Below, piece by piece: positions 24,135 to 48,012 of a stretch of 58,644 bases of DNA (position 1 is the stretch's first letter; each line of letters starts with the position of its first letter). Below the pieces are notes generated by a model. It ran no database searches, was not told the origin of the DNA, and saw only the letters and a program-made list of their open reading frames with translations. The DNA comes from a virus. Position numbers and translations under genes: made by a program. The stretch lies in the IMG/VR virus record IMGVR_UViG_3300006917_000003, positions 1 through 58,644 of that record; one strand, written 5' to 3'.

Positions 24135-24163
24135 TTGACAAGCTATTCTAGGCGTGATACCAT
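24135..24163 (+). promoter_or_regulatory. Promoter of the 24.18-kb gene pair
   Basis: TTGACA (24135-24140), 17 bases, TACCAT (24158-24163). The first plausible start after it is ATG at 24181 with GGAGGTGAAG, which excludes the upstream in-frame ATG at 24154. Confidence 0.7.
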
Positions 24164-24616: not shown

Positions 24617-24645
24617 TTGACAAGGAACGTCAGATCTGCAATACT
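24617..24645 (+). promoter_or_regulatory. Repeated-cassette promoter, copy 1
   Basis: TTGACA, spacer AGGAACGTCAGATCTGC, AATACT. This is the first of the near-identical promoters that recur between 34.4 and 40.9 kb. The leader before the gene at 24706 ends GGAAACCAAACAGGAGG, then TGCGAG and ATG. Confidence 0.85.
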
Positions 24646-25774: not shown

Positions 25775-25803
25775 TTGACAAGAAAGCTCAGATCGACTAT
25801 ACC
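25775..25803 (+). promoter_or_regulatory. Promoter of the DUF932 gene
   Basis: TTGACA, spacer AGAAAGCTCAGATCGAC, TATACC. It is related to the cassette promoters (same AG...CAGATC spacer pattern) but has a stronger -10, suggesting higher expression. Confidence 0.75.
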
Positions 25804-32400: not shown

Positions 32401-33381
32401 ATGGACGAAACGACCGACTTGGTGCCAGTCGCTGAAGGCGTGCTGGCCCGCCGCGAAGAGATCGAAAGCGCGGCAAGCTACGCCGAGGAGGCGCTGGCCA
32501 AGAACACCCGCAAGGCATACACCGCTGCGTGGCGCAAGTTCACGCGGTGGTGCGACGAACGGCAGTTCGATCCGTATGGCCCCCGGGGGCAGATCGCGAT
32601 CTATCTCGCGTGGCTGGCCGACGAGGGTGCCAAGGTGAGCACACTTTCGATCGCCCTGTGCGCCATCACCAAAGCGTTCGACACCAAGGGCCTGCCGTCG
32701 CCCCGGGAAGACCGCGCCGTGCGGCTGGTGTATCAGGGCATCCGGCGCAAGGTCGGTATCGCGCCCGAGCAGGTCGAGGCAATCCTGCCCCACCACCTGC
32801 GCTCGATGGTGGACAGCTTGCCCGAGCCGCTGGAGCGCGAGCGCCTCCGCACGCTCCGCAACCGCGCCATCCTGACCATGGGCTGGGTGGGCGGTATGCG
32901 CCGCAGCGAGATTGTGGCGCTCGACGTGGCCGACGTGGCTGAAGTCCCTGAAGGGCTGAAGGTCACCATCCGGCGCAGCAAGACCGACCAAGAAGGTCTT
33001 GGCCGCACCATCGCGGTGCCCTACGGTGCATGGCTCCAGACTTGCCCAGTACGCAACTTGAAGGCTTGGCTGGAGGCGTCGGGTGTGAAAGACGGCCCGC
33101 TGTTTCGCACGGTGACGCCTGACGGCTACGACGTGCGCCCGTGGGCGCTGACCGACCGCCAGTTGGCCAACATGGTCCAGCAGGCAGCCAAGCGGGCGGG
33201 CGTCGAGGGCCGGTTCAGCGGCCACAGCCTGCGGGCGGGGCTGGTGACGTCGGCGGTTCGCGCCGGCAAGCAAGTCAAGTCGATCCAAGCCGTGACCGGC
33301 CACAAGACGCTAGAGGTGCTGTACCGCTACGTCCGTGAGCAGGAGGCATTCAAGGACAGCCCCGCTGCGGGGTTGGTGTAG
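32401..33381 (+). CDS. int-like: Tyrosine recombinase/integrase
   Basis: 326 aa; ATG at 32401 has GGAG six bases upstream and is preferred over the GTG at 32398. An N-terminal SAM-like core-binding domain (NTRKAYTAAWRKFTRWCDER) precedes the catalytic domain with all residues: Arg in GGMRRSEI, Lys in RRSKTDQ, HSLRAG, His in VTGHKTLE and Tyr in LYRYVRE. It could integrate the genome or resolve replication multimers. No att site or excisionase is recognised nearby, and it lies inside a multi-gene operon, so resolution or a lost lysogeny function should also be considered. Confidence 0.92.
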   Translation: MDETTDLVPVAEGVLARREEIESAASYAEEALAKNTRKAYTAAWRKFTRWCDERQFDPYGPRGQIAIYLAWLADEGAKVSTLSIALCAITKAFDTKGLPSPREDRAVRLVYQGIRRKVGIAPEQVEAILPHHLRSMVDSLPEPLERERLRTLRNRAILTMGWVGGMRRSEIVALDVADVAEVPEGLKVTIRRSKTDQEGLGRTIAVPYGAWLQTCPVRNLKAWLEASGVKDGPLFRTVTPDGYDVRPWALTDRQLANMVQQAAKRAGVEGRFSGHSLRAGLVTSAVRAGKQVKSIQAVTGHKTLEVLYRYVREQEAFKDSPAAGLV

Positions 33382-33792: not shown

Positions 33793-34151
33793 TCGGCTTG
33801 GCAGCCTTGGCCATCCTCTTGGCGCAGCCCGCGCACCCTGCACCACTTGAGCAGGCGCTGGAGTACGTCGAGAGCCGGGGCAACCCGATGGCCCGCAACG
33901 GCGTCCACCGTGGCCTGTGGCAGGTGAACCCGCGCTTTGCTACCCCGACCGTCCGCAAGCACCCGTGGCTCCTGCACCTGCCGCCAGTAGGCCGTGCAGA
34001 GGGCCGGCGGGCGCTGGCCTACTGGCAGCACCGCTGTGGCGGTCGGCTGCGCTGCGCGCTGGCTGCGTACAACTGCGGCAACGCGGGTGTGCATGGCAAG
34101 TGTGGGCGCGGCTACGCCGCCGAGGTGCTGCGGCTGGCGAGAGCGCCATGA
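33789..34151 (+). CDS. Secreted lytic transglycosylase-like protein
   Basis: 120 aa from GTG at 33789. The N-terminus IGLAALAILLAQPAHPAP looks like a cleavable signal. The SLT pattern follows: VESRGNP with catalytic-type Glu28, GLWQVNP, and near the end ALAAYNCGNAG. It is shorter than most SLT domains, so it may be minimal or degraded. It would cut glycan strands in the periplasm. Coupled on both sides by 4-bp overlaps. Confidence 0.7.
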   Translation: MIGLAALAILLAQPAHPAPLEQALEYVESRGNPMARNGVHRGLWQVNPRFATPTVRKHPWLLHLPPVGRAEGRRALAYWQHRCGGRLRCALAAYNCGNAGVHGKCGRGYAAEVLRLARAP

Positions 34152-34354
34152 TCAAGCCCCGCTGGAAGCCCGAGGACGACGCCCGCTTGCGCGGGCACAT
34201 CGAGCACACGCACCTGCGTCGGCAGTGCGATTGGTACGCATACGTCGCCACCGACATGGGACGCACCGCCGGGGCCATCCAGCAGCGGTGTCACGTTCTG
34301 GGCATCCACCCGCGCAAGCTCGCGGTGTGCCCCAAGTGCAAGCGCCCCTTGTAG
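34148..34354 (+). CDS. Small HTH/SANT-like DNA-binding protein with zinc knuckle
   Basis: 68 aa from ATG at 34148. WKPEDDARLRGHIEH and GRTAGAIQQRCHVLGI form a three-helix Myb/SANT- or GcrA-like pattern, followed by CPKCKRP. Such small proteins bind DNA and may regulate the array of cassette promoters that begins right after it. It is the last gene of the 30.7-kb operon. Confidence 0.65.
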   Translation: MIKPRWKPEDDARLRGHIEHTHLRRQCDWYAYVATDMGRTAGAIQQRCHVLGIHPRKLAVCPKCKRPL

Positions 34355-34376
34355 CGACTCCATCTTGAGAGGGCCA

Positions 34377-34414
34377 AGTCCCGACCCCGTGCGCGAGTGT
34401 GCGGGGTCGGGACT
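34377..34414 (+). terminator. Hairpin terminator before the cassette array
   Basis: AGTCCCGACCCCG (34377-34389) pairs perfectly with CGGGGTCGGGACT (34402-34414); the loop is 12 bases. Only CTTG follows, so the T run is weak. It separates the operon from the first cassette promoter. Confidence 0.65.
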
Positions 34415-34429
34415 CTTGCGCCCAGACAC

Positions 34430-34458
34430 TTGACAAGGAACGTCAGATCTGCAATACT
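34430..34458 (+). promoter_or_regulatory. Repeated-cassette promoter, copy 2
   Basis: TTGACA, spacer AGGAACGTCAGATCTGC, AATACT; identical to copy 1. It is followed by CCAAGGCGTGAGAGGGAGAG and the leader ending AACGAGGAGGTGTGAG before ATG at 34509. Confidence 0.85.
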
Positions 34459-34508
34459 CCAAGGCGTGAGAGGGAGAGAGGAGACGGAAGCCAACGAGGA
34501 GGTGTGAG

Positions 34509-34754
34509 ATGGAGAAGCAGTGGGCAGAGGCGGAAACTTGGCCGGGGGCAAGCAAGCTCAAGCACTTGCTGGAACAAGCCAACAAGGATCGCCAAAACAA
34601 CGACCCCTTCTGGGAGGCGCGGAACCTCAAGGATTGCTTGGAGCACCTGCACGCAGTGGCGATGGAAGACTTCAAGGCTCACAAGTACGAGGACTACTGC
34701 GAGAAGGTGCGGTGGGTGGTCGAGGCTTGGGCTGCCAACTGGGGCGTGAAGTGA
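34509..34754 (+). CDS. Cassette-array protein, function unknown
   Basis: 81 aa from ATG at 34509 behind the repeated leader. It is highly helical and rich in Trp, Lys and Glu (KQWAEAETWPGASKLKHLLE, then CEKVRWVVEAWAANWG). It resembles small all-helical early phage proteins that inhibit host factors, but no family is recognised. It shares its transcript with the next gene. Confidence 0.7.
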   Translation: MEKQWAEAETWPGASKLKHLLEQANKDRQNNDPFWEARNLKDCLEHLHAVAMEDFKAHKYEDYCEKVRWVVEAWAANWGVK

Positions 34755-34788
34755 AGGACGGAGACGGAAACCAAACAGGAGGTGTGAG

Positions 34789-35115
34789 ATGGAGAAGGTG
34801 ACTTACCGCAAGACGCAGGACGGGGCTTGGGTGGCCTTCGGCCCCGCCCACACGGTGCAGCCCGGGTGCGCGGTGACCGTGACCAAGCGCGACGGCACGA
34901 CCAAGGTCGAGTTCGTGGAGCGCATCGGACGGCCCTTCACGGTGGACGGTGTGATGTGCGTCTACGGCTACCTGCGAGCACCCGACTTGCCGCGAGGCCA
35001 AGCCATCCGGCGCATGATGGCGCAGGGGAAGGTGGGCGGTCGGGCTTGCCCGCTCTGCGGAGCGCGGGACTGCCCCAAGGCGTGGGACCAGCGCGACCTC
35101 TGCCAAGAGGACTAG
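34789..35115 (+). CDS. Cassette-array protein with zinc-like C-terminus
   Basis: 108 aa from ATG at 34789, preceded by GGAAACCAAACAGG and AGGTGTGAG. A beta-rich first half (VTYRKTQDGAWVAFGP, GCAVTVTKRDGTTKVEFVE) leads to a CPLCGARDCPK site and a final Cys. It may be a small DNA- or protein-binding factor. There is no own promoter. Confidence 0.7.
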   Translation: MEKVTYRKTQDGAWVAFGPAHTVQPGCAVTVTKRDGTTKVEFVERIGRPFTVDGVMCVYGYLRAPDLPRGQAIRRMMAQGKVGGRACPLCGARDCPKAWDQRDLCQED

Positions 35116-35118
35116 GGG

Positions 35119-35147
35119 TTGACAAGGAACGTCAGTTCTGCAATACT
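35119..35147 (+). promoter_or_regulatory. Repeated-cassette promoter, copy 3
   Basis: TTGACA, spacer AGGAACGTCAGTTCTGC, AATACT. The spacer differs from copies 1 and 2 by one base (GTT for GAT). Followed by TCTAGGCGTGAGGTGAGG. Confidence 0.85.
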
Positions 35148-35203
35148 CTAGGCGTGAGGTGAGGGAGAGAGGACGGAGACGGAAACCAAACAGGAGGTGT
35201 GAG

Positions 35204-35401
35204 ATGGAAAACACTGGGGACGACCTCAAGGCTCTGGAACTGCTGGCAGAGACGCACAAGCTGCTGGGCGACACCAAGGGCTACATCGCGACGATGATGG
35301 TGCTGGCGGCAGAGCACCTGCGGCTGGGCAACACCGACGCCTACTGCGAGACGGTGTGGGCGCTGGTCATTGACGAGAACTGCACCATCGAGGAGGTGTG
35401 A
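35204..35401 (+). CDS. Cassette-array protein, helical, function unknown
   Basis: 65 aa from ATG at 35204 behind the full leader. It is nearly all helical, with a repeat-like pattern (LLAETHKLLGDTKGYIATMM and LAAEHLRLGNTDAYCETVW) like two TPR-type hairpins. Its last codons GAGGAGGTG plus TGA serve as the ribosome site for the following gene. Confidence 0.7.
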   Translation: MENTGDDLKALELLAETHKLLGDTKGYIATMMVLAAEHLRLGNTDAYCETVWALVIDENCTIEEV

Positions 35402-35402
35402 G

Positions 35403-35723
35403 ATGAAGCACCTGCCACCGATCACGCTCAAGAACGCCAAGCGGCCTGTGCGCTGGCGCTACTTCCCAGAGGTCAACCGCTACGGGCTGGGTGTGGTGGA
35501 GGTCGCCCCCGACACGCCGTGGGGCGAGCGACTGCGCTGGCTGGTGATCTACAACCAGACCGATTGGGAAAACCCCGACCTGCGCGGCTTTGGCCTGTGG
35601 GAGCGCGCCCGCGACGACAGCATGATCGCCCACTTTGGCAACTTCAAGTCCCTGCGCGAGGCGCAGGAGGCGAGCTACGACCTGCTGCGAGAACTCTTTG
35701 ACGGCGACGACGCAGGGGCTTGA
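35403..35723 (+). CDS. Cassette-array protein with S-L-R-E-A-Q module
   Basis: 106 aa from ATG at 35403, using a ribosome site inside the preceding gene's last codons. Beta-rich, with RYGLGVVEVAPDTPWGE and RLRWLVIYNQT, ending in FKSLREAQEASYDLLREL, which is the helix of the recurrent small module. The stop overlaps the next promoter. Function unknown. Confidence 0.68.
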   Translation: MKHLPPITLKNAKRPVRWRYFPEVNRYGLGVVEVAPDTPWGERLRWLVIYNQTDWENPDLRGFGLWERARDDSMIAHFGNFKSLREAQEASYDLLRELFDGDDAGA

Positions 35724-35748
35724 CAAGGAACGTCAGTTCTGCAATACT
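35720..35748 (+). promoter_or_regulatory. Repeated-cassette promoter, copy 4
   Basis: TTGACA, spacer AGGAACGTCAGTTCTGC, AATACT; same spacer as copy 3. It begins within the stop codon of the preceding gene, so the cassettes are packed end to end. Confidence 0.85.
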
Positions 35749-35796
35749 CTAGGCGTGAGGTGAGAGAGGAGACGGAAGTCAACGAGGAGGTGCGAG

Positions 35797-36096
35797 ATGG
35801 AGATCAAGATCACAAACGCCAAGGTCAACTACCACCGCAACGGTGTGGGCGGCTGGCCCTTCTACCTCGTCACGTTCGATTGGAAGGACGACGACGGCAA
35901 GGACCGCAAGATGCTGGCCACGGTGCCATGCACGACCGAGAGCGGCGACAAACTGACCCGCGAGGACCGCGTCCTGAGCGTGCTGGACATTGGCCTGCTG
36001 GCCAGCGGCGGCGACCCAACCGACCCCTACAGCAACCACTGGCGCGGCGACAAGTTCGCGGACGAGGTGTGGAACGCAATCGACAACCTTGCGTGA
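35797..36096 (+). CDS. Cassette-array protein, function unknown
   Basis: 99 aa from ATG at 35797 behind the leader GAAGTCAACGAGG and AGGTGCGAG. A beta-rich start (EIKITNAKVNYHRNGVGGW, FYLVTFDWKDDDGKDR) is followed by an acidic, glycine-rich half. It looks like a small beta-sandwich with no catalytic motif. Single-gene unit. Confidence 0.7.
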   Translation: MEIKITNAKVNYHRNGVGGWPFYLVTFDWKDDDGKDRKMLATVPCTTESGDKLTREDRVLSVLDIGLLASGGDPTDPYSNHWRGDKFADEVWNAIDNLA

Positions 36097-36101
36097 GGGG
36101 C

Positions 36102-36130
36102 TTGACAAGGAACGTCAGTTCTGCAATACT
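36102..36130 (+). promoter_or_regulatory. Repeated-cassette promoter, copy 5
   Basis: TTGACA, spacer AGGAACGTCAGTTCTGC, AATACT. Identical to copies 3 and 4, including the downstream TCTAGGCGTGAGGTGAGG. Confidence 0.85.
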
Positions 36131-36186
36131 CTAGGCGTGAGGTGAGGGAGAGAGGACGGAGACGGAAACCAAACAGGAGGTGTGAG

Positions 36187-36531
36187 ATGAAGTACGGTAG
36201 CATGATGAATCTGCTGGCGAGTCGGAGCAAGAACCCCACCCCCGAGGTCGGCATGGGCGCGACCATGCTGCTGTGGAGCGACCGGCACGCGGGCACGGTG
36301 GTGGAGGTCAAGGGCAAGCGGCTGGTGTGGCAGCGGGACAAGGCCACGCGGGCAGACACCTACGGCATGAGCGACTGCCAGAGCTACACCTACGAGGCCA
36401 ACCCCGAGGGGGAAACCGAGGCGTTCACCCTGCGGAAGAACGGCGAGTGGGTGCGGGAAGGCTCCTCGATGAAGAGCGGCACGACCCTTGGGCTGGGATA
36501 CCGGCGGGAGTACTACGACTACAGCTTCTAG
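36187..36531 (+). CDS. Cassette-array protein, function unknown
   Basis: 114 aa from ATG at 36187 with the full leader. It contains a KNP near residue 16 and a beta-rich body (ATMLLWSDRHAGTVVEVKG, RLVWQRDKATRADTYG), ending in aromatic residues (REYYDYSF). Soluble, unrecognised. It is followed by a good terminator, so it is an independent unit. Confidence 0.7.
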   Translation: MKYGSMMNLLASRSKNPTPEVGMGATMLLWSDRHAGTVVEVKGKRLVWQRDKATRADTYGMSDCQSYTYEANPEGETEAFTLRKNGEWVREGSSMKSGTTLGLGYRREYYDYSF

Positions 36532-36545
36532 GTGAGGGGTGAGGT

Positions 36546-36582
36546 CAAGGCCCGTGCGAGAGCGCGGGCCTTGGTGTTTTTT
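36546..36582 (+). terminator. Rho-independent terminator in the cassette array
   Basis: CAAGGCCCG pairs perfectly with CGGGCCTTG (36565-36573), followed by GTGTTTTTTGGG. A near copy, including the downstream GGCCGTGCGCGA, lies at 38026, showing that terminator and promoter were copied together. Confidence 0.8.
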
Positions 36583-36603
36583 GGGCCGTGCGCGACAAAG
36601 TAC

Positions 36604-36632
36604 TTGACAAGGGATACCAGATCTCGTACCAT
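36604..36632 (+). promoter_or_regulatory. Variant cassette promoter, copy 6
   Basis: TTGACA, spacer AGGGATACCAGATCTCG, TACCAT. The CAGATCT core of the spacer is kept while the rest differs, as does the -10. Confidence 0.8.
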
Positions 36633-36681
36633 CTAGACGTGAGAGGGAGAGAGGACGGAGACGGAAACAAGGAGGTGTGAG

Positions 36682-36759
36682 ATGGTGGTGGAGATGCTGG
36701 TGCTGACGGTGTTGTTGGCGGTATGTTTGGCCTGCCCCAAGGAAGGGGAGGAGGTCTGA
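36682..36759 (+). CDS. 25-aa lipoprotein-like peptide
   Basis: ATG at 36682 has the full ACAAGGAGGTGTGAG leader. The peptide is one hydrophobic stretch (MVVEMLVLTVLLAVCLAC) ending in a lipobox-like LAVC/CLAC, then PKEGEEV. With its own promoter and leader it is probably translated. A membrane-targeted or lipid-modified micropeptide is the reading; confidence is moderate because of size. Confidence 0.5.
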   Translation: MVVEMLVLTVLLAVCLACPKEGEEV

Positions 36760-36789
36760 CCGAGACGGAAACCAAACAGGAGGTGTGAG

Positions 36790-36966
36790 ATGTGGCGAGT
36801 GAGCGACTTGGGCAAGGGCTACTACATGGGTCGGTGGGGTGCAAGGGACGCCTCTACCGGCGAGGTGCGGCTGGTATCGAACAGCCACCGGCTCGTCACC
36901 ACGTTGGGCAACACACGCAAGGCGGCGCGAGAGCTTGCCCGCCTGCTGAACGCACGGGAGGTGTGA
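36790..36966 (+). CDS. 58-aa cassette-array protein
   Basis: ATG at 36790 behind GGAAACCAAACAGG and AGGTGTGAG. It has a short beta hairpin (GKGYYMGRWGARDASTGEVR) and a basic helix (NTRKAARELARLLNARE), giving a compact basic protein that could bind nucleic acid. Its final codons plus stop form the ribosome site of the next gene. Confidence 0.6.
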   Translation: MWRVSDLGKGYYMGRWGARDASTGEVRLVSNSHRLVTTLGNTRKAARELARLLNAREV

Positions 36967-36967
36967 G

Positions 36968-37237
36968 ATGGTTGAGTTCGACAAGGCGCAGGGCGCGCGC
37001 CGGGACGAGGACAGGGAGTGGTGGGTGATGGTCGATGGCAAGTCGGTCGGCTTAGTGACCGGCAACGTGATCAACGAGAACCAGCGAGGGTTGTACTCCT
37101 TCAGCTTGCAGCCGGCGCGGTATGTGATCAAGGACTACAGCGTCGAGGTGGAGGACGCCCACGGCCAAGAGTACACGGGCACGTTCGCGACTCTCAAGGA
37201 GGCCAAGCAGTTCGTGCGGTCGTTGTTCAAGGCGTGA
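36968..37237 (+). CDS. Cassette-array protein containing the recurrent small module
   Basis: 89 aa from ATG at 36968. Beta strands (WWVMVDGKSVGLVTGN, RYVIKDYSVEVEDA) end in FATLKEAKQFVRSLFKA, the same strand-helix unit found before NP motifs in the acetyltransferase-like and virion proteins. Here it is the C-terminus and no NP follows. Function unknown. Confidence 0.68.
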   Translation: MVEFDKAQGARRDEDREWWVMVDGKSVGLVTGNVINENQRGLYSFSLQPARYVIKDYSVEVEDAHGQEYTGTFATLKEAKQFVRSLFKA

Positions 37238-37277
37238 GAGGGGGAGACGGAGACGGAAACCAACAAGGAGGTGCGAG

Positions 37278-37637
37278 ATGGAGACGTTGAAGCTGATGGA
37301 GACGCCCAAGGACATGCCGGTGTGGCTCAAGCGCGACGTGGACAACATGCGCGAGCGATTGGCCGACACGGGGCTGGCGTTTGAGCGAGACGGTGTGCGG
37401 TACTGGCACGCCAACGGTCGGGTGGTGCCGACCGAGGTCTACCAGAACGCCTACGTCGAGTGCCCCAAGGCCCAGCGGGTCGCCTACGAGGCGCAGACCC
37501 GCCAGTTCTTGGACGAGTACCTCGCAGCCGAACGCGACCGCCAGCCCTCTGCGGAGGAGCAGTACGAGATGCGAGCGGCCTTTGGCACCAACGCCACGGT
37601 GGTCAACGTGCTCACGGGGCGGCGGTGGCGCACCTGA
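37278..37637 (+). CDS. Cassette-array protein, function unknown
   Basis: 119 aa from ATG at 37278 behind GGAAACCAACAAGG and AGGTGCGAG. It is helical and charged (LKRDVDNMRERLADTGLAFE, then AQTRQFLDEYLAAERDRQP), with a hydrophobic end (ATVVNVLTGRRW). No motif. Last gene of the 36.6-kb transcript. Confidence 0.68.
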   Translation: METLKLMETPKDMPVWLKRDVDNMRERLADTGLAFERDGVRYWHANGRVVPTEVYQNAYVECPKAQRVAYEAQTRQFLDEYLAAERDRQPSAEEQYEMRAAFGTNATVVNVLTGRRWRT

Positions 37638-37644
37638 TAGGGGG

Positions 37645-37673
37645 TTGACAAGGAACGTCAGATCTGCAATACT
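37645..37673 (+). promoter_or_regulatory. Repeated-cassette promoter, copy 7
   Basis: TTGACA, spacer AGGAACGTCAGATCTGC, AATACT; identical to copies 1 and 2. Confidence 0.85.
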
Positions 37674-37722
37674 CCAAGGCGTGAGAGGGAGACGGAGACG
37701 GAAACCAAACAGGAGGTGTGAG

Positions 37723-38004
37723 ATGGCGACCAAGTTGGGCGAGATGACTTTCTGGCACTTGAAGCGGGACTCCAAGGTGTGGACGCGGGTCTGGGTTGAG
37801 TTGGCCGGCTTGCAGCCCGGGCAGTGGAAGGGCAACACCGAGTGCGAGGACGAGGACACGGGCGAGGTCTGGCAGTACATGGGCAGCTACTGCGACGACG
37901 CGATGGACCCCGTGGGCGTGCATGAGTTCCGGCACCGCTGCCACCCTGCGGACGGCGAGCGGTGGTACTTGCAGATCCCGGCCAAGCAGGTCAAGGAGGC
38001 TTGA
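37723..38004 (+). CDS. Cassette-array protein, function unknown
   Basis: 93 aa from ATG at 37723 with the full leader. It starts ATKLGEMTFWHLKRDSKV and is tryptophan- and acidic-rich, with His/Cys residues (HEFRHRCHPADGERW) that might bind metal. Single gene between promoter and terminator. No family recognised. Confidence 0.7.
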   Translation: MATKLGEMTFWHLKRDSKVWTRVWVELAGLQPGQWKGNTECEDEDTGEVWQYMGSYCDDAMDPVGVHEFRHRCHPADGERWYLQIPAKQVKEA

Positions 38005-38025
38005 GCCTCACGCAAGTCGAGGCCG

Positions 38026-38059
38026 AGGCCCGTGCGAGAGCGCGGGCCTTGGTGTTTTT
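38026..38059 (+). terminator. Rho-independent terminator, second copy
   Basis: AGGCCCG (38026-38032) pairs with CGGGCCT (38043-38049), followed by TGGTGTTTTTGGG. It closely matches the terminator at 36546, including the flanking GGGCCGTGCGCGA. Confidence 0.8.
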
Positions 38060-38090
38060 GGGCCGTGCGCGAGAGGGTACTTGACAAGGA

Positions 38091-38119
38091 ACGTCAGATC
38101 TGCAATACTCCAAGGCGTG
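38091..38119 (+). promoter_or_regulatory. Repeated-cassette promoter, copy 8
   Basis: TTGACA, spacer AGGAACGTCAGATCTGC, AATACT; identical to copies 1, 2 and 7. Confidence 0.85.
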
Positions 38120-38159
38120 AGAGGGAGAGAGGACGGAGACGGAAACAAGGAGGTGTGAG

Positions 38160-38366
38160 ATGGCAAAGGTCAAGTGGGTGTCTTGCGGCGACTGTGAACA
38201 CTGCTGGCGGGGCGACAGCGACTACTGCAACTACCGGCGCGAGGTGAAGGTCGCGGCCAAGCCGCGCAAGCGGAAGGTGGCTGACGACGGCTGGCGGCGG
38301 GAGATGGCGATGGAAGCCGGCATGGGGCTGGGAGTTGAAGCCTACAACGACGCGATGGGTTGCTAA
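38160..38366 (+). CDS. Cassette-array zinc-binding protein
   Basis: 68 aa from ATG at 38160. CGDCEHCWRGDSDYC at residues 9-23 gives four cysteines and a histidine for zinc, followed by a basic stretch (KPRKRKV) and a helical, methionine-rich end. Probably nucleic-acid or protein binding. Coupled to the next gene through AAGGAGGTGTGAG. Confidence 0.65.
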   Translation: MAKVKWVSCGDCEHCWRGDSDYCNYRREVKVAAKPRKRKVADDGWRREMAMEAGMGLGVEAYNDAMGC

Positions 38367-38377
38367 GGAGGTGTGAG

Positions 38378-38569
38378 ATGGAGACGACGGTCGAGGAGAA
38401 GGTCAAGCTGGAGCACTACTTGGGCAGGGTGTGTCCCTACTGCCACGCCCGAGCGGTGCGGGGTCATGAGGACAACGGCCTGCGGGGTTGGGAGCGGGCC
38501 TACTTGTGCGGGAACTGCCGCGAGCAGTGGGACGCCGAGAACTACGCCCCCGACAACGAGGGGGGTTGA
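38378..38569 (+). CDS. Cassette-array zinc-ribbon protein
   Basis: 63 aa from ATG at 38378 behind a short leader. A CPYC and CGNC pair, about 25 residues apart, makes a zinc ribbon between two acidic ends. Such small ribbons often target RNA polymerase. The stop lies within the next promoter. Confidence 0.65.
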   Translation: METTVEEKVKLEHYLGRVCPYCHARAVRGHEDNGLRGWERAYLCGNCREQWDAENYAPDNEGG

Positions 38570-38594
38570 CAAGGAATGTCCCTTGTGCAATACT
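38566..38594 (+). promoter_or_regulatory. Variant cassette promoter, copy 9
   Basis: TTGACA, spacer AGGAATGTCCCTTGTGC, AATACT. The -10 and the AGGAAYGTC start are kept, but the palindromic CAGATCTG core is replaced by CCCTTGTG. Confidence 0.8.
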
Positions 38595-38645
38595 CCAAGG
38601 CGTGAGAGGGAGAGAAGAGACGGAAACCAACACAGGAGGTGTGAG

Positions 38646-39095
38646 ATGGGCAACCGAGTTGTGGTGACGTTGGACAGCAAGCCGACCAAGAACAGCATGG
38701 GCCTCTACCTGCACTGGAACGGCGGGCCGGAGAGCGTGCTGGCCTTTGCGGAGTACGCCCGGGAAGTTGGGTTGTGCAGCGGCGGGGACAACTGCTACGG
38801 GATCGCCCAGTTGGCGCGGATCGTGGGCAACTTCTTCGGGGACAACCTGAGCGTGGGTGTGGGGACGCTGGGGACGCTGGACTGCGACAACGGCGACAAC
38901 GGGCTGGTGGCGGTCGAGTGGGACACGGTCGGGGTGCGGATGCGGCAGGCCAAGCGGGGCGAGATCGACAAGCTGGAGCCGGTGGACTTGGCCAAGGTCC
39001 GGCAGCACCCCTACTGGACACACAGCGAGGGCGACGAGGCGATGCTCAAGGTGGTGCGGGAGAAGAACTGGGCTAGCCGCCACGGGAGCCTGTAG
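38646..39095 (+). CDS. Cassette-array protein, function unknown
   Basis: 149 aa from ATG at 38646 with the full leader (ACCAACACAGG and AGGTGTGAG). It is glycine- and aspartate-rich, with beta-type strands (RVVVTLDSKPTK, GLYLHWNGGPESVLAFAEYA). The form WNGG..S.L resembles a domain common in small phage proteins of unknown role. One of the larger members of the array and the only gene of its unit. Confidence 0.7.
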   Translation: MGNRVVVTLDSKPTKNSMGLYLHWNGGPESVLAFAEYAREVGLCSGGDNCYGIAQLARIVGNFFGDNLSVGVGTLGTLDCDNGDNGLVAVEWDTVGVRMRQAKRGEIDKLEPVDLAKVRQHPYWTHSEGDEAMLKVVREKNWASRHGSL

Positions 39096-39099
39096 GGGC

Positions 39100-39128
39100 T
39101 TGACAAGGGATTCCACTTGTGGGATGCT
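39100..39128 (+). promoter_or_regulatory. Variant cassette promoter, copy 10
   Basis: TTGACA, spacer AGGGATTCCACTTGTGG, GATGCT. The stretch ATTCCACTTGTGGGAT is a near-perfect inverted repeat inside the spacer and could be an operator for a different regulator. Confidence 0.8.
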
Positions 39129-39183
39129 CTGGGCGTGAGGTGAGGAGAGAGACGGAGACGGAAACCAACACAGGAGGTGCGAG

Positions 39184-39519
39184 ATGGCAACAACAGACTT
39201 CAGCACGGACCACTTGAACGGCTACAGAGCGGATCTGGCTTGGGGCATCGTCAAGTGGCTGGCCGCTCGCACGGGTGAGCACCCTGACGGTGGCGGCTGC
39301 AAGGCGTTCTACAGCCCCCGGGAGTGGGTGAAGCGCGGCGAGAGCTACGGCAAGGACGCGGTGCTCATCCTCTGCCACGACGGCGGGGCGCTGGCCCCCT
39401 TCTGCAACTACAACTACGGCAACTGGGAAGGGATGAAGGCTTTCAGCGACTTCCTGAGCAGCAAGGGCTACTACGTCGAGTGCTGCACAAGCTGGTACAG
39501 CGCGGTCTACCGCGCCTGA
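39184..39519 (+). CDS. Cassette-array protein, function unknown
   Basis: 111 aa from ATG at 39184 behind the leader. It is rich in Tyr, Cys and Gly: ADLAWGIVKWLAARTGEHP, KDAVLILCHDGGALAPFCNY, GYYVECCTSWYSAVY. The ILCHDGG strand-turn is reminiscent of a compact alpha/beta fold, but no catalytic set is evident. Confidence 0.7.
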   Translation: MATTDFSTDHLNGYRADLAWGIVKWLAARTGEHPDGGGCKAFYSPREWVKRGESYGKDAVLILCHDGGALAPFCNYNYGNWEGMKAFSDFLSSKGYYVECCTSWYSAVYRA

Positions 39520-39552
39520 GCGACCCAACCAACAACGAGACGGAGGTGTGAG

Positions 39553-39813
39553 ATGCACAAGGACGCGCTGCGGGCAGTCGAGAAGAGCATGTCTTGCGAC
39601 AGTGTGGAGTGGTGCGAGGCGACCGAGTACAACATCTACTGGTTGCGCCGCTGGTCGAATGACGCAGCACGCACGGACGGCTCGCCCTACGGTGAGACGC
39701 ACCACCACGACCGCTGGATGTTTCGCGGCCTCGACTATGACGAGAACAACTGGGAGTGCGACTGGTGTGTGGCAATCGAGCCGCCCGCCGATGGTGCGGA
39801 GGTGGAGCCATGA
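39553..39813 (+). CDS. Small protein before the DUF2325-like gene
   Basis: 86 aa from ATG at 39553 with GAGACGGAGGTGTGAG. Acidic and Trp-rich, with scattered Cys/His residues (SVEWCEATEYNIYWLRRW, WECDWCVAIEP). The ending overlaps the next start (ATGA). Function unknown. Confidence 0.65.
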   Translation: MHKDALRAVEKSMSCDSVEWCEATEYNIYWLRRWSNDAARTDGSPYGETHHHDRWMFRGLDYDENNWECDWCVAIEPPADGAEVEP

Positions 39814-40841
39814 AGGCGCTGGTGGTAGGTGGCTTTGCCGCCAAGACACGCGGATCGTGGGCCAAGGCGTTGCGAGAGCACTGCGGCATTGAAGTCGCGC
39901 ATGTGTACGGAGCCGACAACGACTTCAAGGGCCTGCCAAGCACCCTGCCCTCCGACGTGGGCTTGGTGCTGGCGGTGGTTGGCACCTGCTCGCACAAGGC
40001 AAGCAATCGCGCAAAGGCGTTGGCGGTTGCAGCCGGGGCACGCTGGGAGCCTGTGAGCAAGGACACCACCCGGGCGGTGCAGTGGCTCAGGCAGAAGGGG
40101 TTCACGTCCGCGCCGCAGCCTGTGTCCACGGTCGAGGTTCACATGGGCGAGCCAACGTGGCTGGTCGAGGGGATGCAGCAGGAAACTACACCCGAGGTTG
40201 AGCAGGAGGTCAAGGTGGAGGCGCAGACCAAAACAGAGTTCGCAGACTGGCTGGACTTCTCGCAGGTGCGTGAGCTACTGCCAGACCTGCACCCGGCGAC
40301 GTTCTACGGGCTGACGCGCAAGCTGGTGAAGCGCGACGAGGTGCGCGAGCCGCGCACACGCATCGATGCCACGGGGCGCACAGTGACCACCAACATGCTC
40401 CTTTGGTCGCTGGCCGAGGTCGAGGAGGTGGAGGCGCTGGCCAAGTCGCGTGGGTTGCTCAAGCCCAAGGTCAAGCCCGAGCCTGCGCCCGAGCCGCCCA
40501 AGTCCAACGCGATCATGGGCACGCCGTTTCGCCCCCTGTCCGAGGCTCCCAAGTGGAGGTTCGTACCGGCTGAGTCCGAGCCGCTCAAGCCGGTGTCCGA
40601 AGCGCCGCCGCTATACAAGCTCGTTGCATCGGAGCAGTACTCCGCGCCAGCGGTTCACGCCTCGCCCGAGGCGGTGTCCGTGCTTCGCGACTACCACGCC
40701 GAGATGGCGACGCTCATGGACGAGTACGCCCACAAGAAGACCCGCGACCTGCGCGGGATGCTCGACAAGGTCGTGGCCGAGCGGGACGCCCTGCGGGCGC
40801 AGTTGGACAAGATCAAGCTCGCCTTGGGGCTTGACAAGTGA
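39810..40841 (+). CDS. DUF2325-like N-terminal domain with coiled-coil C-terminus
   Basis: 343 aa from ATG at 39810. The first 95 residues (MKALVVGGFAAKTRGSWAKA, VAHVYGADND, LVLAVVGTCSHKASNRAKAL) fit DUF2325-type Rossmann-like domains. A winged-helix-like middle (HPATFYGLTRKLVKRDEV), a Pro/Lys/Glu linker and a C-terminal coiled coil follow. The design (ligand domain, DNA-binding-like domain, multimerising tail) suggests a regulator or DNA-associated sensor. This is inference. The next promoter begins inside its 3' end. Confidence 0.65.
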   Translation: MKALVVGGFAAKTRGSWAKALREHCGIEVAHVYGADNDFKGLPSTLPSDVGLVLAVVGTCSHKASNRAKALAVAAGARWEPVSKDTTRAVQWLRQKGFTSAPQPVSTVEVHMGEPTWLVEGMQQETTPEVEQEVKVEAQTKTEFADWLDFSQVRELLPDLHPATFYGLTRKLVKRDEVREPRTRIDATGRTVTTNMLLWSLAEVEEVEALAKSRGLLKPKVKPEPAPEPPKSNAIMGTPFRPLSEAPKWRFVPAESEPLKPVSEAPPLYKLVASEQYSAPAVHASPEAVSVLRDYHAEMATLMDEYAHKKTRDLRGMLDKVVAERDALRAQLDKIKLALGLDK

Positions 40842-40859
40842 TTCCAGATCTCCTATCTT
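40831..40859 (+). promoter_or_regulatory. Variant cassette promoter, copy 11
   Basis: TTGACA, spacer AGTGATTCCAGATCTCC, TATCTT. It keeps the CAGATCT core, like copy 6. Confidence 0.8.
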
Positions 40860-40895
40860 CTGGGTGTGGGGCGAGAGGCCCCGGGGAGGTGGGAG

Positions 40896-41162
40896 ATGGT
40901 GGCGACGATGGAGGAGATGGTGGCGGCGGTGAAAGCCCACGCCCAAGCCAACTACGGCAAGGACGGCTGGGACACCATCGTCGAGTGCTACGAGGACGAC
41001 GAGCTTGCCAAGCTGATCGAGGATAACGGATCGACCACGGTGGCCGAGGCCATCCGCGAGGTAGGTGAGGGGTGCAAGGTGCGGGCTGACTACGAGGCCG
41101 ACATTCGGGCCGAGGGTGGCTGGGGACCTTACGCCGGGGGCAAGCACTGGTGGGAAGTCTGA
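40896..41162 (+). CDS. Cassette-array protein, function unknown
   Basis: 88 aa from ATG at 40896 behind GGAGGTGGGAG, a short leader form. It has helical (MEEMVAAVKAHAQANYGKD) and acidic segments (EDDELAKLIEDNG) and an aromatic end (GPYAGGKHWWEV). Soluble and acidic; no motif. Confidence 0.65.
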   Translation: MVATMEEMVAAVKAHAQANYGKDGWDTIVECYEDDELAKLIEDNGSTTVAEAIREVGEGCKVRADYEADIRAEGGWGPYAGGKHWWEV

Positions 41163-41190
41163 GGTGGTGAAGCCAACACGGAGGTGGGAG

Positions 41191-41535
41191 ATGGAAGTTA
41201 CTTGTGTGAAGACGTACAAGGGTGAGCATGAGATCAAGGGCGTGGCCTATGGCATCGAGGACGACCGAGGCCGCGAGGTCGGCATCCTCGCCATCCTTTG
41301 GGAAGAAGCCTACATGCAGGCCACGCGGGAGCAAGAACGGACAGGCATGTGGCATCGGAGTGTGGAGCCGGGGCGCTACTTCGTCGCCAACATCCAGACC
41401 ACGCGAGGTGGCAAGCGGTACGGGGCGGTCCAGCCCGACCAGCTATTCAAGACGACAGAGGAGCGGGACGCCTACGTTGCCAAGCGGGTCGAGGACGGGC
41501 GAAAGCAGGCTACCAAGAAGTTCGGGGTCTGCTAG
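41191..41535 (+). CDS. Last cassette-array protein, function unknown
   Basis: 114 aa from ATG at 41191 behind GGAGGTGGGAG. It has beta strands (EHEIKGVAYGIEDDRGREV) and a Glu/Arg helix, then RYFVANIQTTRGGKRYGAV and a lysine-rich end. No family recognised. A terminator follows. Confidence 0.65.
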   Translation: MEVTCVKTYKGEHEIKGVAYGIEDDRGREVGILAILWEEAYMQATREQERTGMWHRSVEPGRYFVANIQTTRGGKRYGAVQPDQLFKTTEERDAYVAKRVEDGRKQATKKFGVC

Positions 41536-43461: not shown

Positions 43462-43644
43462 TCACTTCTTGGCGTACTTGTGGAAGCAGTAGCCAACCAG
43501 AAGGCCGAGCAGCAACACACCTACGATCGGGCCTGCGGGCAGGCGCTTGGGCGTGCGGAAGGAGTTGGGGTCGCGGTTGCTTCCAGCCAAAGCGTAGCCT
43601 TGGGTGGTGTAGCCGTAGCCGATCGGGGACTCTTGAACCATCAT
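43462..43644 (-). CDS. Small C-terminally anchored virion membrane protein
   Basis: 60 aa from ATG at 43644 behind GAGGAAGG. The first 38 residues are polar, with GSNRDPNS; residues 39-56 form one membrane helix (GPIVGVLLLGLLVGYCF) followed by HKYAKK. It has the same plan as many proteins of this operon: outside domain, C-terminal helix, short basic tail. It is the last gene of the operon. Confidence 0.72.
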   Translation of the reverse strand: MMVQESPIGYGYTTQGYALAGSNRDPNSFRTPKRLPAGPIVGVLLLGLLVGYCFHKYAKK

Positions 43645-43657
43645 GGTGTGCCTTCCT

Positions 43658-43789
43658 CTAGCGCCGCTTGCGCGACTTGACGTTCAGGCCCTTGTACACA
43701 GCGTAGGCCAGTCCAGCAAGGACTACCACGCCAGCCACGGTCAGGCCGACGTTGCGGGTGGAGATGTATCCGTTGGTCGAGTGCATCAT
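43658..43789 (-). CDS. 43-aa membrane protein of the virion operon
   Basis: ATG at 43787-43789 is followed by MHSTNGYISTRNVGLTVAG and a helix (VVVLAGLAYAVYKG) ending in a very basic tail (NVKSRKRR). The gene fits exactly between its neighbours with 2- and 13-bp gaps, which supports it despite its length. It is probably a minor membrane component of the virion. Confidence 0.7.
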   Translation of the reverse strand: MMHSTNGYISTRNVGLTVAGVVVLAGLAYAVYKGLNVKSRKRR

Positions 43790-43791
43790 GG

Positions 43792-44226
43792 TCAGTCCTT
43801 CTTGCGGAAGATGAAGTACAGCACTGCTGCCCCGCCCAGCAGCAGCGCGATGGTGGGGATGCCCCCAGACGGCGGGGCAGCAGCGGGCACAGTGGCAGGC
43901 ACCAGCTTGTCGAGAGTGACCTTGGTGACTCCCAACTTGAAAGACTCTGCCAAGTCGCTGGCAAGGTCGTCGATCGATTGGAGGCCACCACCAATGGCCT
44001 GCACCTTGTCGTTGGCTTGCCCAGCAGAGAAGGCGAAGAGCAGCCCACCAGCGACCATCTGCTTGTCTGGGATCTTGAACACGCCCGATGGCGTGTAGAG
44101 CGTCATCAGATACGGCCCGTTGAGGCGCGGTGCCAAAGCCTTGAACAGGTCAACAGTCGTCACCGTCTGCTGGGCAGTCGGATCGACCACATAGGGCTTG
44201 CCTTCGATCACAATCGCTTCAGCCAC
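43792..44226 (-). CDS. C-terminally anchored virion protein
   Basis: 144 aa from GTG at 44226. It has a soluble domain (IVIEGKPYVVDPTAQQTV, GPYLMTLYTPSGVFKIPD), a helical middle and an Ala/Pro linker. Residues about 121-139 form one helix (IPTIALLLGGAAVLYFIF) with RKKD behind it. No catalytic motif. It belongs to the run of membrane-anchored proteins from 43.5 to 47 kb. Confidence 0.72.
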   Translation of the reverse strand: MAEAIVIEGKPYVVDPTAQQTVTTVDLFKALAPRLNGPYLMTLYTPSGVFKIPDKQMVAGGLLFAFSAGQANDKVQAIGGGLQSIDDLASDLAESFKLGVTKVTLDKLVPATVPAAAPPSGGIPTIALLLGGAAVLYFIFRKKD

Positions 44227-44229
44227 GGC

Positions 44230-44865
44230 TTACTCCCCCTTCTGGTTCAAGAGCCACAGCAGCCCGCCTGCGATAGCCAGAGCAGCCAAACCGCCGCCGC
44301 CCTCTTCCTTCTTCGGTGGCGGGGGTGGAGGCGTGGCGGCGGGTGTCTTTGCTGGTGCCGCCGTGCCGATCGCATTGAACGTGGCGTCGGTCACCTGCTT
44401 GTCTTCACCCTTGGACAAGGGCAGAAGATCGACAGGGTCTTGCGGGCCAGCGAAGAGGCGCGAGAAGCGGTCGCTCTTGTTGGCTTGCGTGATCAGTACG
44501 CCGTCCGCGCCCTCGTAGAACATCCACTGGTTGGGCGCAGTCGGGGCAGACTCGATGATCCAGTTGCCGTTCTTGCCCGGGATCTTGACCACGTCAGCGG
44601 CCTTGTCGTACCCCAGCAGGTCAGCAGCCTGCTTGATCGAAAGCTCGCCCTCGTAGATGCGAACTGGCGTGCCCTTCTTGAGCGTCTTGGGCTGACCCAC
44701 GGCGTTGGTCAACAGGTCGCTGACGTACTGAACGTCCACGTCAACGGGCAGGTAGCCGTTTCGCCACTTGAGCTTGCCCGACTTGGTCGCAAACTGCGGC
44801 GCAGGCTCCACTGGGGCACCCGCCAAGAAGTGTTCGTCTTCGCTATCGTCTCCGATGCCAAACAT
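44230..44865 (-). CDS. C-terminally anchored virion protein, paralogue of the next gene
   Basis: 211 aa; ATG at 44865 has AAGGAG five bases upstream and is preferred over GTG at 44871. It shares with the following upstream gene a KKGT.VR.Y.G strand, a DLLPL.K block, an ATFN/MFDP-like segment and a poly-Gly linker before a C-terminal helix (GLAALAIAGGLLWLL). Between these, a polyproline stretch acts as a stalk. It appears to be a soluble head held above a membrane. Function unknown. Confidence 0.72.
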   Translation of the reverse strand: MFGIGDDSEDEHFLAGAPVEPAPQFATKSGKLKWRNGYLPVDVDVQYVSDLLTNAVGQPKTLKKGTPVRIYEGELSIKQAADLLGYDKAADVVKIPGKNGNWIIESAPTAPNQWMFYEGADGVLITQANKSDRFSRLFAGPQDPVDLLPLSKGEDKQVTDATFNAIGTAAPAKTPAATPPPPPPKKEEGGGGLAALAIAGGLLWLLNQKGE

Positions 44866-44867
44866 GC

Positions 44868-45482
44868 TCACTCCTTGCTGCCAAACAGCGCCAGCGCCCC
44901 GATGCCCAAGAGCGCCAAGAGGCCGACGCCACCGCCGCCCTTGTCGCCCTTGTCGCCGTCTTTCGTACCCGAACTCTTGCGCTTGGGCTTGCCAGCAGCA
45001 TCGAGCACCGGGAACCCTTGGGCGTCGACCTCGTAGACGGCGGGGTCGAACATGCCCTGCGCGTTGGCCGCGTTGTCGGTGGTGCCAGCCTTGTCGATCG
45101 GCAGCAAGTCCTTGGGGGCGAGCTTGGCCGACAGCATCCGCTTGCGGATGGTGGGCAGAGCCGCCGCGTAAGCAGGCGAGGACATGAGCGCCTGCGCCTC
45201 TGGGGTGTCAGGGTAGGCTGCCCAGTAGCCGCCGCCCGCAAGCTCGACCAAGTACTGGTCGTTGGTGGGGCTTTGGATCGTAGCTTGATCCGTCCACGGG
45301 ATGGTGCCCACATACACGCGCACGATGGTGCCCTTCTTGATCACCGTGTCCGGCTCCGCGCCGCCCCAGTTGGGCAGCGTCTTGGCGGGCGTATCTTCAG
45401 CCACGACGCCGTTCGACCAGCCGAACTTGCCGACGTTGAACTTGGTGCCTGTCGTCGCTTCGCCGTTGCCTGCCAGCATCAT
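44868..45482 (-). CDS. C-terminally anchored virion protein with glycine stalk
   Basis: 204 aa from ATG at 45482 in a TGATG overlap with the preceding gene. The N-terminal domain is beta-rich (NVGKFGWSNGVVAED, KKGTIVRVYVGTIPW, YLVELAGGGYWAAY), then helical (APKDLLPIDKAG). A Lys/Asp/Gly stalk (GDKGDKGGGGVG) precedes the terminal helix (LLALLGIGALALFG). Diverged paralogue of the next gene downstream; the two may occupy equivalent positions on the virion membrane. Confidence 0.72.
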   Translation of the reverse strand: MMLAGNGEATTGTKFNVGKFGWSNGVVAEDTPAKTLPNWGGAEPDTVIKKGTIVRVYVGTIPWTDQATIQSPTNDQYLVELAGGGYWAAYPDTPEAQALMSSPAYAAALPTIRKRMLSAKLAPKDLLPIDKAGTTDNAANAQGMFDPAVYEVDAQGFPVLDAAGKPKRKSSGTKDGDKGDKGGGGVGLLALLGIGALALFGSKE

Positions 45483-45808
45483 CACACACCCCGCTTGGCC
45501 AAGCACCACGCCTCGACGGCGGGGATCGGCCCTGAGAACTTGGCCACCTGCTCACCTTGCGCTGCCCAGCCGCCGCCTTCTTTGGCGAAGGTACGCACAG
45601 GCCGCACGGTGGTATAGTACCCCGCATCTCCCTTGCCCACCAGCCCCCAAAAGTTGTGACCGAGGGCGTAGCGCCCCCAGCCAGACTTGGCGGCTGCCTC
45701 TGCCAAGCACTGCTTGGGGTCGAGGCCGTAGCGCGGGCACACGGTGGCCGCAGCGGGCACCAGCGCCCGCAGGAACGCCTCCTGCTGCTGGCGGGTGGGC
45801 TGGTTCAC
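45482..45808 (-). CDS. Glucosaminidase-like (FlgJ-type) protein with altered catalytic position
   Basis: 108 aa from GTG at 45808 (GTGA overlap). CLAEAAAKSGWGRYALGHNFWGL matches the helix-turn of beta-N-acetylglucosaminidases (usual form A..ESGWG..ALG.N.FGIKG). The usual catalytic Glu before SGWG is Lys here, with a Glu six positions earlier. The continuation (TFAKEGGGWAAQ, FSGPIPAVEAW) fits the family. Either the enzyme is rearranged, or it is an inactive glycan-binding subunit. Four cysteines are spread over the protein. Confidence 0.65.
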   Translation of the reverse strand: MNQPTRQQQEAFLRALVPAAATVCPRYGLDPKQCLAEAAAKSGWGRYALGHNFWGLVGKGDAGYYTTVRPVRTFAKEGGGWAAQGEQVAKFSGPIPAVEAWCLAKRGV

Positions 45809-46656: not shown

Positions 46657-46665
46657 GGTGGCACC

Positions 46666-47043
46666 TTACTTGCGGGAGCCAAAGTAGTAGCCCACCGCCA
46701 GACCTACCACGAACAGTGGGATCGAGATCGTCATCACCGACTTCTGGACGCTGCCCTTGACCGTCTCGATCGTCTCTTGGCCCTTGGGCGAGGCGACGAA
46801 CTTCTGGCCGGTCTTGCTCAGTACGTCGGAGAAGAACTCCGTGCGATCCGCACGCTCCTTCGATCCGGCAGGGCCACCTTGGATGGTCTTGTTGATCGCC
46901 TCTGCAAGGGCGTTGGCGATCGGGTCGCCGCCCAGCGGGTCACCCGGGCCAGCCAAGTTGCCCGCCATGTAGCCACGCGGGAAGTTGGTGCGCGGAGGGG
47001 CTTGGGCAGGCCCAAGGATCTCGACGTAGTCAGGCTGGATCAT
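46666..47043 (-). CDS. C-terminally anchored virion protein
   Basis: 125 aa from ATG at 47043, overlapping the upstream stop by 4 bp. Extended Pro/Gly-rich N-terminus (GPAQAPPRTNFPRGYMAG), then helical (ANALAEAINKTIQGG) and a terminal helix (MTISIPLFVVGLAVGYYFG) with SRK. Same plan as its neighbours. Function unknown. Confidence 0.7.
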   Translation of the reverse strand: MIQPDYVEILGPAQAPPRTNFPRGYMAGNLAGPGDPLGGDPIANALAEAINKTIQGGPAGSKERADRTEFFSDVLSKTGQKFVASPKGQETIETVKGSVQKSVMTISIPLFVVGLAVGYYFGSRK

Positions 47044-47993: not shown

Positions 47994-48012
47994 GGTCTTC
48001 CTCGCTGTCGGC

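What the first reader, a model, noticed from the sequence alone, without database searches (positions are those of the whole stretch)
34430..41535. Array of small genes behind a copied promoter and 5' leader
Eleven promoters here and at 24617 share TTGACA, a 17-base spacer and mostly AATACT, and about twenty starts share GGAAACCAAACAGG followed by AGGTGTGAG and ATG. Some copies include the upstream terminator. The genes themselves are unrelated. The design resembles the start-associated sequences of cluster K mycobacteriophages and would let one factor switch on many host-takeover or anti-defence genes, and let cassettes be gained by recombination between identical leaders.
Basis: partly seen in the sequence, partly recalled or inferred. 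Interest (0 to 1): 0.8.

Follow-up and report, generated by a model that had tools for sequence, protein, structure and literature searches.

The report
Phage gene array with copied promoters
A bacterial virus carries about nineteen unrelated small genes, most grouped one to three behind near-identical copies of one strong 'on switch' and ribosome-landing sequence; some other viruses carry the same genes behind their own, different, copied switches, and in one such pair a whole cassette is gained or lost exactly at those copies.

Summary
In a complete-looking 58.5-kb phage genome, 11 TTGACA / 17-nt spacer promoters (8 with AATACT, 7 identical over 29 nt bar one variable base; two looser ones besides) precede small, mutually unrelated genes, and 21 starts carry AGGAGGTGNGAG-ATG. 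The long GGAAACCAAACAGG form is rarer than claimed (6 exact, 1 near). A leader-similarity test gave 96 high-scoring pairs of start regions, with none at that score in 6,000 between-genome pairs. Promoter and leader variants occur in all four combinations, which points to recombination inside the array. No close relative of this phage was found, so cassette turnover could not be tested in it. But three array genes (g54, g57, g61) recur in unrelated phages. In a minority of those (7-11 of 43 groups for g61, against 1-5% of distant genes), the gene sits behind a copied leader of quite different sequence. In one such pair (L033/L146) a ~1-kb cassette is present or absent exactly between two leader copies. 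I conclude: an expression-cassette array read by host sigma-70 RNA polymerase, akin to T4 PeSL cassettes and archaeal-virus shared early promoters, not a member of the cluster K SAS family. A dedicated activating factor and anti-defence functions remain unproven.

The parts
34430..34458 (+). promoter copy, TTGACA-17-AATACT, spacer variant CAGATCTG; drives g49-g50
34481..34511 (+). leader + SD (GGAAGCCAACGAGGAGGTGTGAG) + ATG of g49
   Evidence: family D4
34509..34754 (+). g49, 81 aa, no family
34761..34791 (+). leader + SD without promoter, before g50
   Evidence: D4
34789..35115 (+). g50, 108 aa, C-terminal zinc-ribbon-like Cys pattern (by eye)
35119..35147 (+). promoter copy, spacer variant CAGTTCTG; drives g51-g52
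35176..35206 (+). leader + SD + ATG of g51; block 35115-35206 is 99% identical to 36098-36189
   Evidence: D5
35204..35723 (+). g51 (65 aa) and g52 (106 aa); the stop of g51 lies inside the SD block of g52, the stop of g52 inside the -35 of the next promoter
35720..35748 (+). promoter copy, spacer variant CAGTTCTG; drives g53
35797..36096 (+). g53, 99 aa, no family
36102..36130 (+). promoter copy, spacer variant CAGTTCTG; drives g54
36187..36531 (+). g54, 114 aa; family shared with phages of Bacillus, Synechococcus, Streptomyces, Variovorax and with Enterococcus plasmids; phrog_19789, function unknown
36544..36575 (+). intrinsic terminator, near copy of 38022-38053
36604..36632 (+). diverged promoter copy TTGACA-17-TACCAT; drives a 25-aa ORF at 36682 and g55-g57
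36790..37637 (+). g55 (58 aa), g56 (89 aa), g57 (119 aa), each with its own leader/SD; a g57 homologue lies beside a g61 homologue in L022
37645..37673 (+). promoter copy, spacer variant CAGATCTG; drives g58
37723..38004 (+). g58, 93 aa, no family
38022..38053 (+). intrinsic terminator
38081..38109 (+). promoter copy, spacer variant CAGATCTG; drives g59-g60
38160..38569 (+). g59 (68 aa, Cys-rich) and g60 (63 aa, zinc-ribbon-like, below Pfam cut-off); the stop of g60 lies in the next -35
38566..38594 (+). promoter copy, spacer CCCTTGTG; drives g61
38646..39095 (+). g61, 149 aa; family with invariant HW.G and DCDNGDNG motifs, relatives in 364 viral stretches
39100..39128 (+). diverged promoter copy, spacer CACTTGTG, -10 GATGCT; drives g62-g64
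39184..40841 (+). g62 (111 aa), g63 (86 aa), g64 (343 aa)
40831..40859 (+). diverged promoter copy TTGACA-17-TATCTT; drives g65-g66; purine-rich leader absent, SD kept
40896..41535 (+). g65 (88 aa, net charge -11) and g66 (114 aa)
24617..24645 (+). outlying promoter copy; drives g27-g29 (24706-25771), leaders at 24678, 25091, 25488
25775..25803 (+). looser promoter copy TTGACA-17-TATACC; drives g30
   Evidence: (D9)
24135..24163 (+). weak member TTGACA-17-TACCAT before g25-g26

Best explanation
This is an array of accessory genes arranged as expression cassettes. Each transcription unit starts with a copied block: a -35 TTGACA, a 17-nt spacer with a short dyad, usually an extended -10 (TGC-AATACT), a short purine-rich and mostly unstructured 5' leader, and a nearly complete Shine-Dalgarno sequence (AGGAGGTG) 4-5 nt before ATG. 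One to four small genes follow and the next block often begins at or inside the last stop codon. Host RNA polymerase with its main sigma factor should read all blocks at once on entry, or on release of a repressor, and ribosomes should load strongly, so many small proteins appear together. Because the block is repeated in direct orientation, homologous recombination between copies can delete, add or reorder whole cassettes without breaking expression. Shown: the repeats, their boundaries, the SD strength, mosaic combinations of promoter and leader, reuse of the same gene families behind different copied leaders in some other phages, and one precise leader-to-leader cassette presence/absence in an analogous array. 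Inferred: sigma-70 use, early timing, high expression, recombination as the cause, accessory (probably host-interaction) function of the genes.
For: Seven matching promoters. 96 start pairs scoring >=24 in this phage against 0 of 6000 between-record pairs. Conservation stops at the element boundaries. Complementarity to AAGGAGGTG of 7-9 nt in 21/21 array starts against 9/69 other genes. Four-gamete pattern: promoter A/T variant x leader GGAAACCAAAC / GGAA[GT]YCAACG in all four combinations (P37645, P34430, P35119+P36102, P35720); P36604 and P38081 share terminator and leader but differ in promoter. g61 homologues in 23 then 80 viral loci; g54+g61 together in L024, g57+g61 in L022. g61's own leader is copied elsewhere in the locus in 7-11 of 43 groups against 8-31 of 586 genes >5 kb away, Fisher 2e-5 to 3e-4 over four thresholds. 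L033/L146: aligned blocks 2047-3072 / 7696-8722 and 3997-5260 / 8635-9900 overlap in L146 by exactly the leader, so the L033 cassette 3073-3996 is absent; in L157 the same gene families stand in another order.
Against: No transcript data. No close relative of this phage, so cassette turnover is shown only in an unrelated phage group. Some genes lack a promoter of their own and some promoters are diverged. Recent duplication with gene conversion would give the same mosaic signals. Relatives that share the replication module lack this leader, so age and function there are unknown. About three quarters or more of the g61-bearing groups show no copied leader at the thresholds used.
Confidence: 0.68

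Rival explanations
1. Repressed prophage regulon: the dyad in the spacer (CAGATCTG / CAGTTCTG / CACTTGTG) is the operator of a phage repressor (candidate: the XRE protein at 9397-9654, minus strand), so the copies are kept alike mainly as operators and the genes are silent in the lysogen and switched on at induction.
For: A tyrosine integrase (32401-33381) and an XRE-type regulator are present. Of all centres tested in the promoter, this 8-mer scores highest for dyad symmetry (40 of 52, next 23), and P39100 changes both half-sites. CAGATCTG occurs 4 times in the genome, all in these promoters.
Against: Identical copies score as dyads together; AGATCT itself occurs 31 times in the genome; the dyad is short and imperfect in 9 of 13 copies; no binding data.
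Confidence: 0.3
2. The leader is mainly a translation device like the SAS of cluster K phages: a phage or host factor binds GGAAACCAAACAGGAGGTGTGAG to favour phage messages.
For: The SD block is the most conserved part (94%) and stands before genes that lack a promoter.
Against: Most conserved bases are explained by pairing with 16S rRNA; the part upstream of the SD varies (52% mean identity, absent at P40831).
Confidence: 0.2
3. The copies are only a recent, neutral amplification (gene conversion or duplication) with no common regulation.
For: Seven near-identical 29-mers and a 92-nt block at 99% imply recent copying.
Against: Identity ends at functional boundaries, diverged copies keep TTGACA, the 17-nt spacer and the SD, and the same design recurs with other sequences in other phages.
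Confidence: 0.1

Closest known systems
PeSL (promoter early stem-loop) cassettes of T4-type phages (Arbiol 2010, Comeau 2014; read here only as cited in PMC4503421 and PMC3950731)
   Same: Copied early promoter with a stem-loop between small accessory genes; proposed to mediate gene shuffling.
   Different: Here the copied block is promoter plus 5' leader plus SD; a copied terminator accompanies two copies only; the phage is not T4-like; sequence differs.
Shared early-gene regulatory sequence of archaeal viruses (SIRV2 and others, PMC11065993)
   Same: Small unrelated genes share a nearly identical strong promoter region within one genome; different viruses have their own sequence; used there to predict anti-defence genes.
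   Different: Bacterial sigma-70 promoter instead of TATA/BRE; an SD leader is included; no known anti-defence gene has been found here.
Start-associated sequences of cluster K mycobacteriophages (PMC3203893, PMC12699233)
   Same: Repeated short sequence including the SD directly before starts of non-structural genes, one orientation, upstream stop codons inside the element.
   Different: Consensus GGGATAGGAGCCC and ESAS 17-bp inverted repeats against AGGAGGTGNGAG with a sigma-70 promoter; no mycobacteriophage kinship seen.
Hammerhead-flanked gene blocks in prophages (PMC3088659)
   Same: A repeated RNA element around individual variable phage genes; one published case flanks ardA, an anti-restriction gene.
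   Different: No ribozyme in this window; found in related loci L014-L020, where g61 homologues are.

Membership tests
Cluster K SAS/ESAS | 13-bp GGGATAGGAGCCC before starts | tested here: not met
   The element is AGGAGGTGNGAG; consensus taken from PMC3203893
Cluster K SAS/ESAS | paired imperfect 17-bp inverted repeats upstream (ESAS) | tested here: not met
   Leaders and promoters show only a short 8-bp dyad in the spacer
Cluster K SAS/ESAS | located before non-structural genes, one orientation | tested here: met
   All 21 on the + strand, outside the minus-strand block
T4 PeSL | copied early promoter between variable small genes | tested here: met
   (promoter by sequence; 'early' not tested)
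T4 PeSL | terminator stem-loop as part of the unit | tested here: inconclusive
   Clearly copied at 36544 and 38022 only
T4 PeSL | shuffling of genes at the cassettes between relatives | tested here: inconclusive
   No close relative of this phage; shown for the analogous L033/L146/L157 arrays
Archaeal-virus type shared early regulatory sequence | expression immediately after infection | not testable with these tools
   No transcript data
Archaeal-virus type shared early regulatory sequence | at least one known anti-defence gene under the sequence | tested here: not met
   No functional match for the array genes scanned in Pfam, PHROGs, PADLOC (defence models only) or the PDB
sigma-70 promoter | TTGACA, 16-18 nt, TATAAT-like hexamer | tested here: met
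   10 found in the 9-kb region, nine of them these copies, against 0.7 expected

The most novel reading that the evidence does not exclude
Copied promoter-leader blocks are a general phage device for holding interchangeable host-interaction genes: unrelated phages each evolve their own block, draw on a common pool of small gene families (g54, g57, g61 and others), and swap cassettes by recombination between block copies. g61-type genes would then be markers for finding unknown anti-defence or takeover genes across many phages.
Probability: 0.35. Interest if true: 0.75.

Novelty: new variant of a known kind. Interest (0 to 1): 0.57.

Why it matters
It gives a sequence rule, copied leaders within one genome, for finding phage accessory cassettes without knowing any of the genes, and three gene families with no known function that recur in such arrays in some unrelated phages. 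It also gives a clean, testable prediction of exact cassette deletion between leader copies (for example 983 bp between the blocks 35115-35206 and 36098-36189).

Tried and rejected
DNA search for the array in INPHARED phages: no match. Promoter 17-mer in viral contigs: four chance hits, none followed by a -10 or SD like those here. Leader 18-mer: one chance hit in a 35% GC contig. GP88-like gene and PolA as single queries: no relatives. Promoter pattern and helicase profile in GTDB genomes: none. Replication-module relatives (L043-L057, MW202816) share some of g7/g9/g14/g15/g16; the five read in full do not have this leader. Whether g49 and g51 are homologous (they looked alike by eye): no alignment. 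Rfam on the array: nothing above gathering. Structures of g61 (pLDDT 73) and g54 (73): no PDB fold match at E<=0.001. AGATCT as a genome-wide XRE operator: too common. Purine-rich leader as a structured RNA: folds about as expected or weaker than shuffles, except P40831, which is stronger.
Full report
What the window is. The first and last 123 bases are identical and the record is a single virus contig, so this is most likely a complete phage genome of 58,521 bp with terminal redundancy from assembly. A replication block (helicases, DUF5906 primase, PD-(D/E)XK nuclease, family A DNA polymerase, topoisomerase IB) and a tyrosine integrase are recognisable. Of the putative virion genes scanned on the minus strand, none has a convincing family match. 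The host is unknown; no genome of the GTDB collection gave a match.

Observation. Ten promoters in the interval plus the one at 24617 share TTGACA and a 17-nt spacer; eight have AATACT and an extended -10. Seven match one 29-nt pattern exactly. Two further members at 24135 and 25775 are looser. Twenty-one starts share the SD block AGGAGGTGNGAG-ATG within two mismatches. Two terminators are copied together with the block.

Beyond chance. Comparing the 90 nt before every plausible start, 96 pairs in this phage reach a score of 24; the highest of 6000 pairs taken between genomes is 20. Mean pairwise identity is 81% in the -35/-10 block and 94% in the SD, but 29% just upstream and 31% in the first twenty codons. 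Array starts can pair with the 16S anti-SD over 7-9 nt in 21 of 21 cases, other genes in 9 of 69. The leader is mostly unstructured.

Compactness. Stops are reused: the stop of g52, of g60 and of g64 lies inside or just after the next -35, and the stops of g51 and g55 lie inside the next SD block. The 18 called genes plus a 25-aa ORF fall into ten transcription units of one to four genes.

Shuffling inside the array. The promoter variant (CAGATCTG or CAGTTCTG) and the leader variant (GGAAACCAAAC or GGAAGYCAACG) occur in all four combinations at P37645, P34430, P35119/P36102 and P35720; P36604 and P38081 share terminator and leader but not promoter. Recombination or gene conversion between copies explains this; repeated mutation is less likely but not excluded.

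The genes elsewhere. A concatenated tblastn search found relatives of g54 and g61, and weaker matches to the region of g63-g65, in unrelated phages; the strongest plasmid matches, to g54, are in Enterococcus faecium. Family searches gave 23 and 6 loci, later 364 stretches for g61 with 80 kept. g54 and g61 occur together in L024, g57 and g61 in L022.

The same design with other sequences. In L024 (record G008) g54, g61 and two other genes share a TTGACA promoter and a CTAG-AAAACTC-GGAG leader; in G010 five genes share a promoter and leader (the g61 homologue there is nearby but not among the five); in L033 and L146 a block of about 107 nt with promoter, hairpin and AGAAAGGATAGAGA precedes four to five genes including g61; in L014-L020 an AACTGCTAGGAG leader, often after a hammerhead ribozyme, precedes several small genes. 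Over 43 independent groups, g61's own leader is copied elsewhere in the locus in 16-26% of cases against 1.4-5.3% of genes more than 5 kb away on the same contigs (Fisher 2e-5 to 3e-4 over four thresholds); neighbours within 3 kb are enriched too. The association is significant but covers a minority of groups; the test uses one strand and a rough gene caller.

Cassette turnover at leaders. L033 and L146 are 80-85% identical. Their aligned blocks overlap in L146 by exactly one leader (8635-8722), so the cassette L033 3073-3996 is present in one and absent in the other, leader to leader. In L157 the same families stand in a different order with an extra gene, a DUF932-type protein as recognised from memory. 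This is what recombination between direct leader copies predicts. It was not possible to show it in the phage of the window.

Mechanism and confidence. Sigma-70 reading, co-expression and strong translation follow from sequence. Repression through the spacer dyad is a live alternative (0.3) and is compatible with the cassette reading. Anti-defence or takeover function is plausible, by analogy with SIRV2 (PMC11065993) and with the ardA gene flanked by hammerheads in Agrobacterium (PMC3088659), but no array gene has a functional annotation.

Comparison. It works like T4 PeSL cassettes (as cited in PMC4503421 and PMC3950731; the originals are not held) and like the shared early promoters of archaeal viruses. 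It is not a cluster K SAS system: the consensus and the ESAS repeats are not met. I file it as a new variant of a known kind.

Noticed in passing
L014 3053-4711, L019 5379-6579, L017 5735 (related phages with a g61 homologue): Four hammerhead-like ribozymes (CTGAYGA, stem II, GAAA, stem III, TC or TA) each stand directly before an AACTGCTAGGAG SD and a small gene. All 16 pairs hold in all copies, 9 with changes on both sides; the Rfam search at E<=1 did not list them. Multiple prophage hammerheads around variable genes are known (PMC3088659).
   Followed up: yes
43462-56699, minus strand: Eight of 27 proteins of the putative virion block carry a single hydrophobic segment 2-12 residues from the C-terminus. 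With no terminase, portal or capsid match among the proteins scanned, a membrane-containing or otherwise unusual virion is possible.
   Followed up: partly
43462-50512, minus strand: Several virion-block proteins share an N-terminal ..LAG.. or ..LSG.. motif (HFLAGAPVEP, MMLAGNG, SHALAGAPP, YALAGSN); perhaps a cleavage or targeting signal.
   Followed up: no
19293, 20154, 21872, 47993, 49623, 54113, 54969: Many proteins begin with or repeat an RNP/KNP/QNP motif (up to 7 times in g78, with a threefold MVGFQRNP repeat).
   Followed up: no
G023 33957-35851 (L058-L061): A relative by replication module carries four small genes behind its own copied leader (ATCGAACGCGGCGAGCACCG..GGAG) inserted between the helicase and the g15 homologue, which are adjacent in the window.
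   Followed up: partly
G036 (six places, e.g. 2775, 31878, 69199 on the minus strand): Another replication-module relative has a scattered repeated promoter element AAGATTTTTGTTGAC before genes.
   Followed up: no
20154-21044: Zeta-toxin / P-loop kinase domain protein in the replication block.
   Followed up: no
9640-9740: Divergent promoters of the XRE gene and the nuclease gene overlap at an inverted repeat GTCAAGA-TC-TCTTGAC, a candidate operator (seen by eye output).
   Followed up: no
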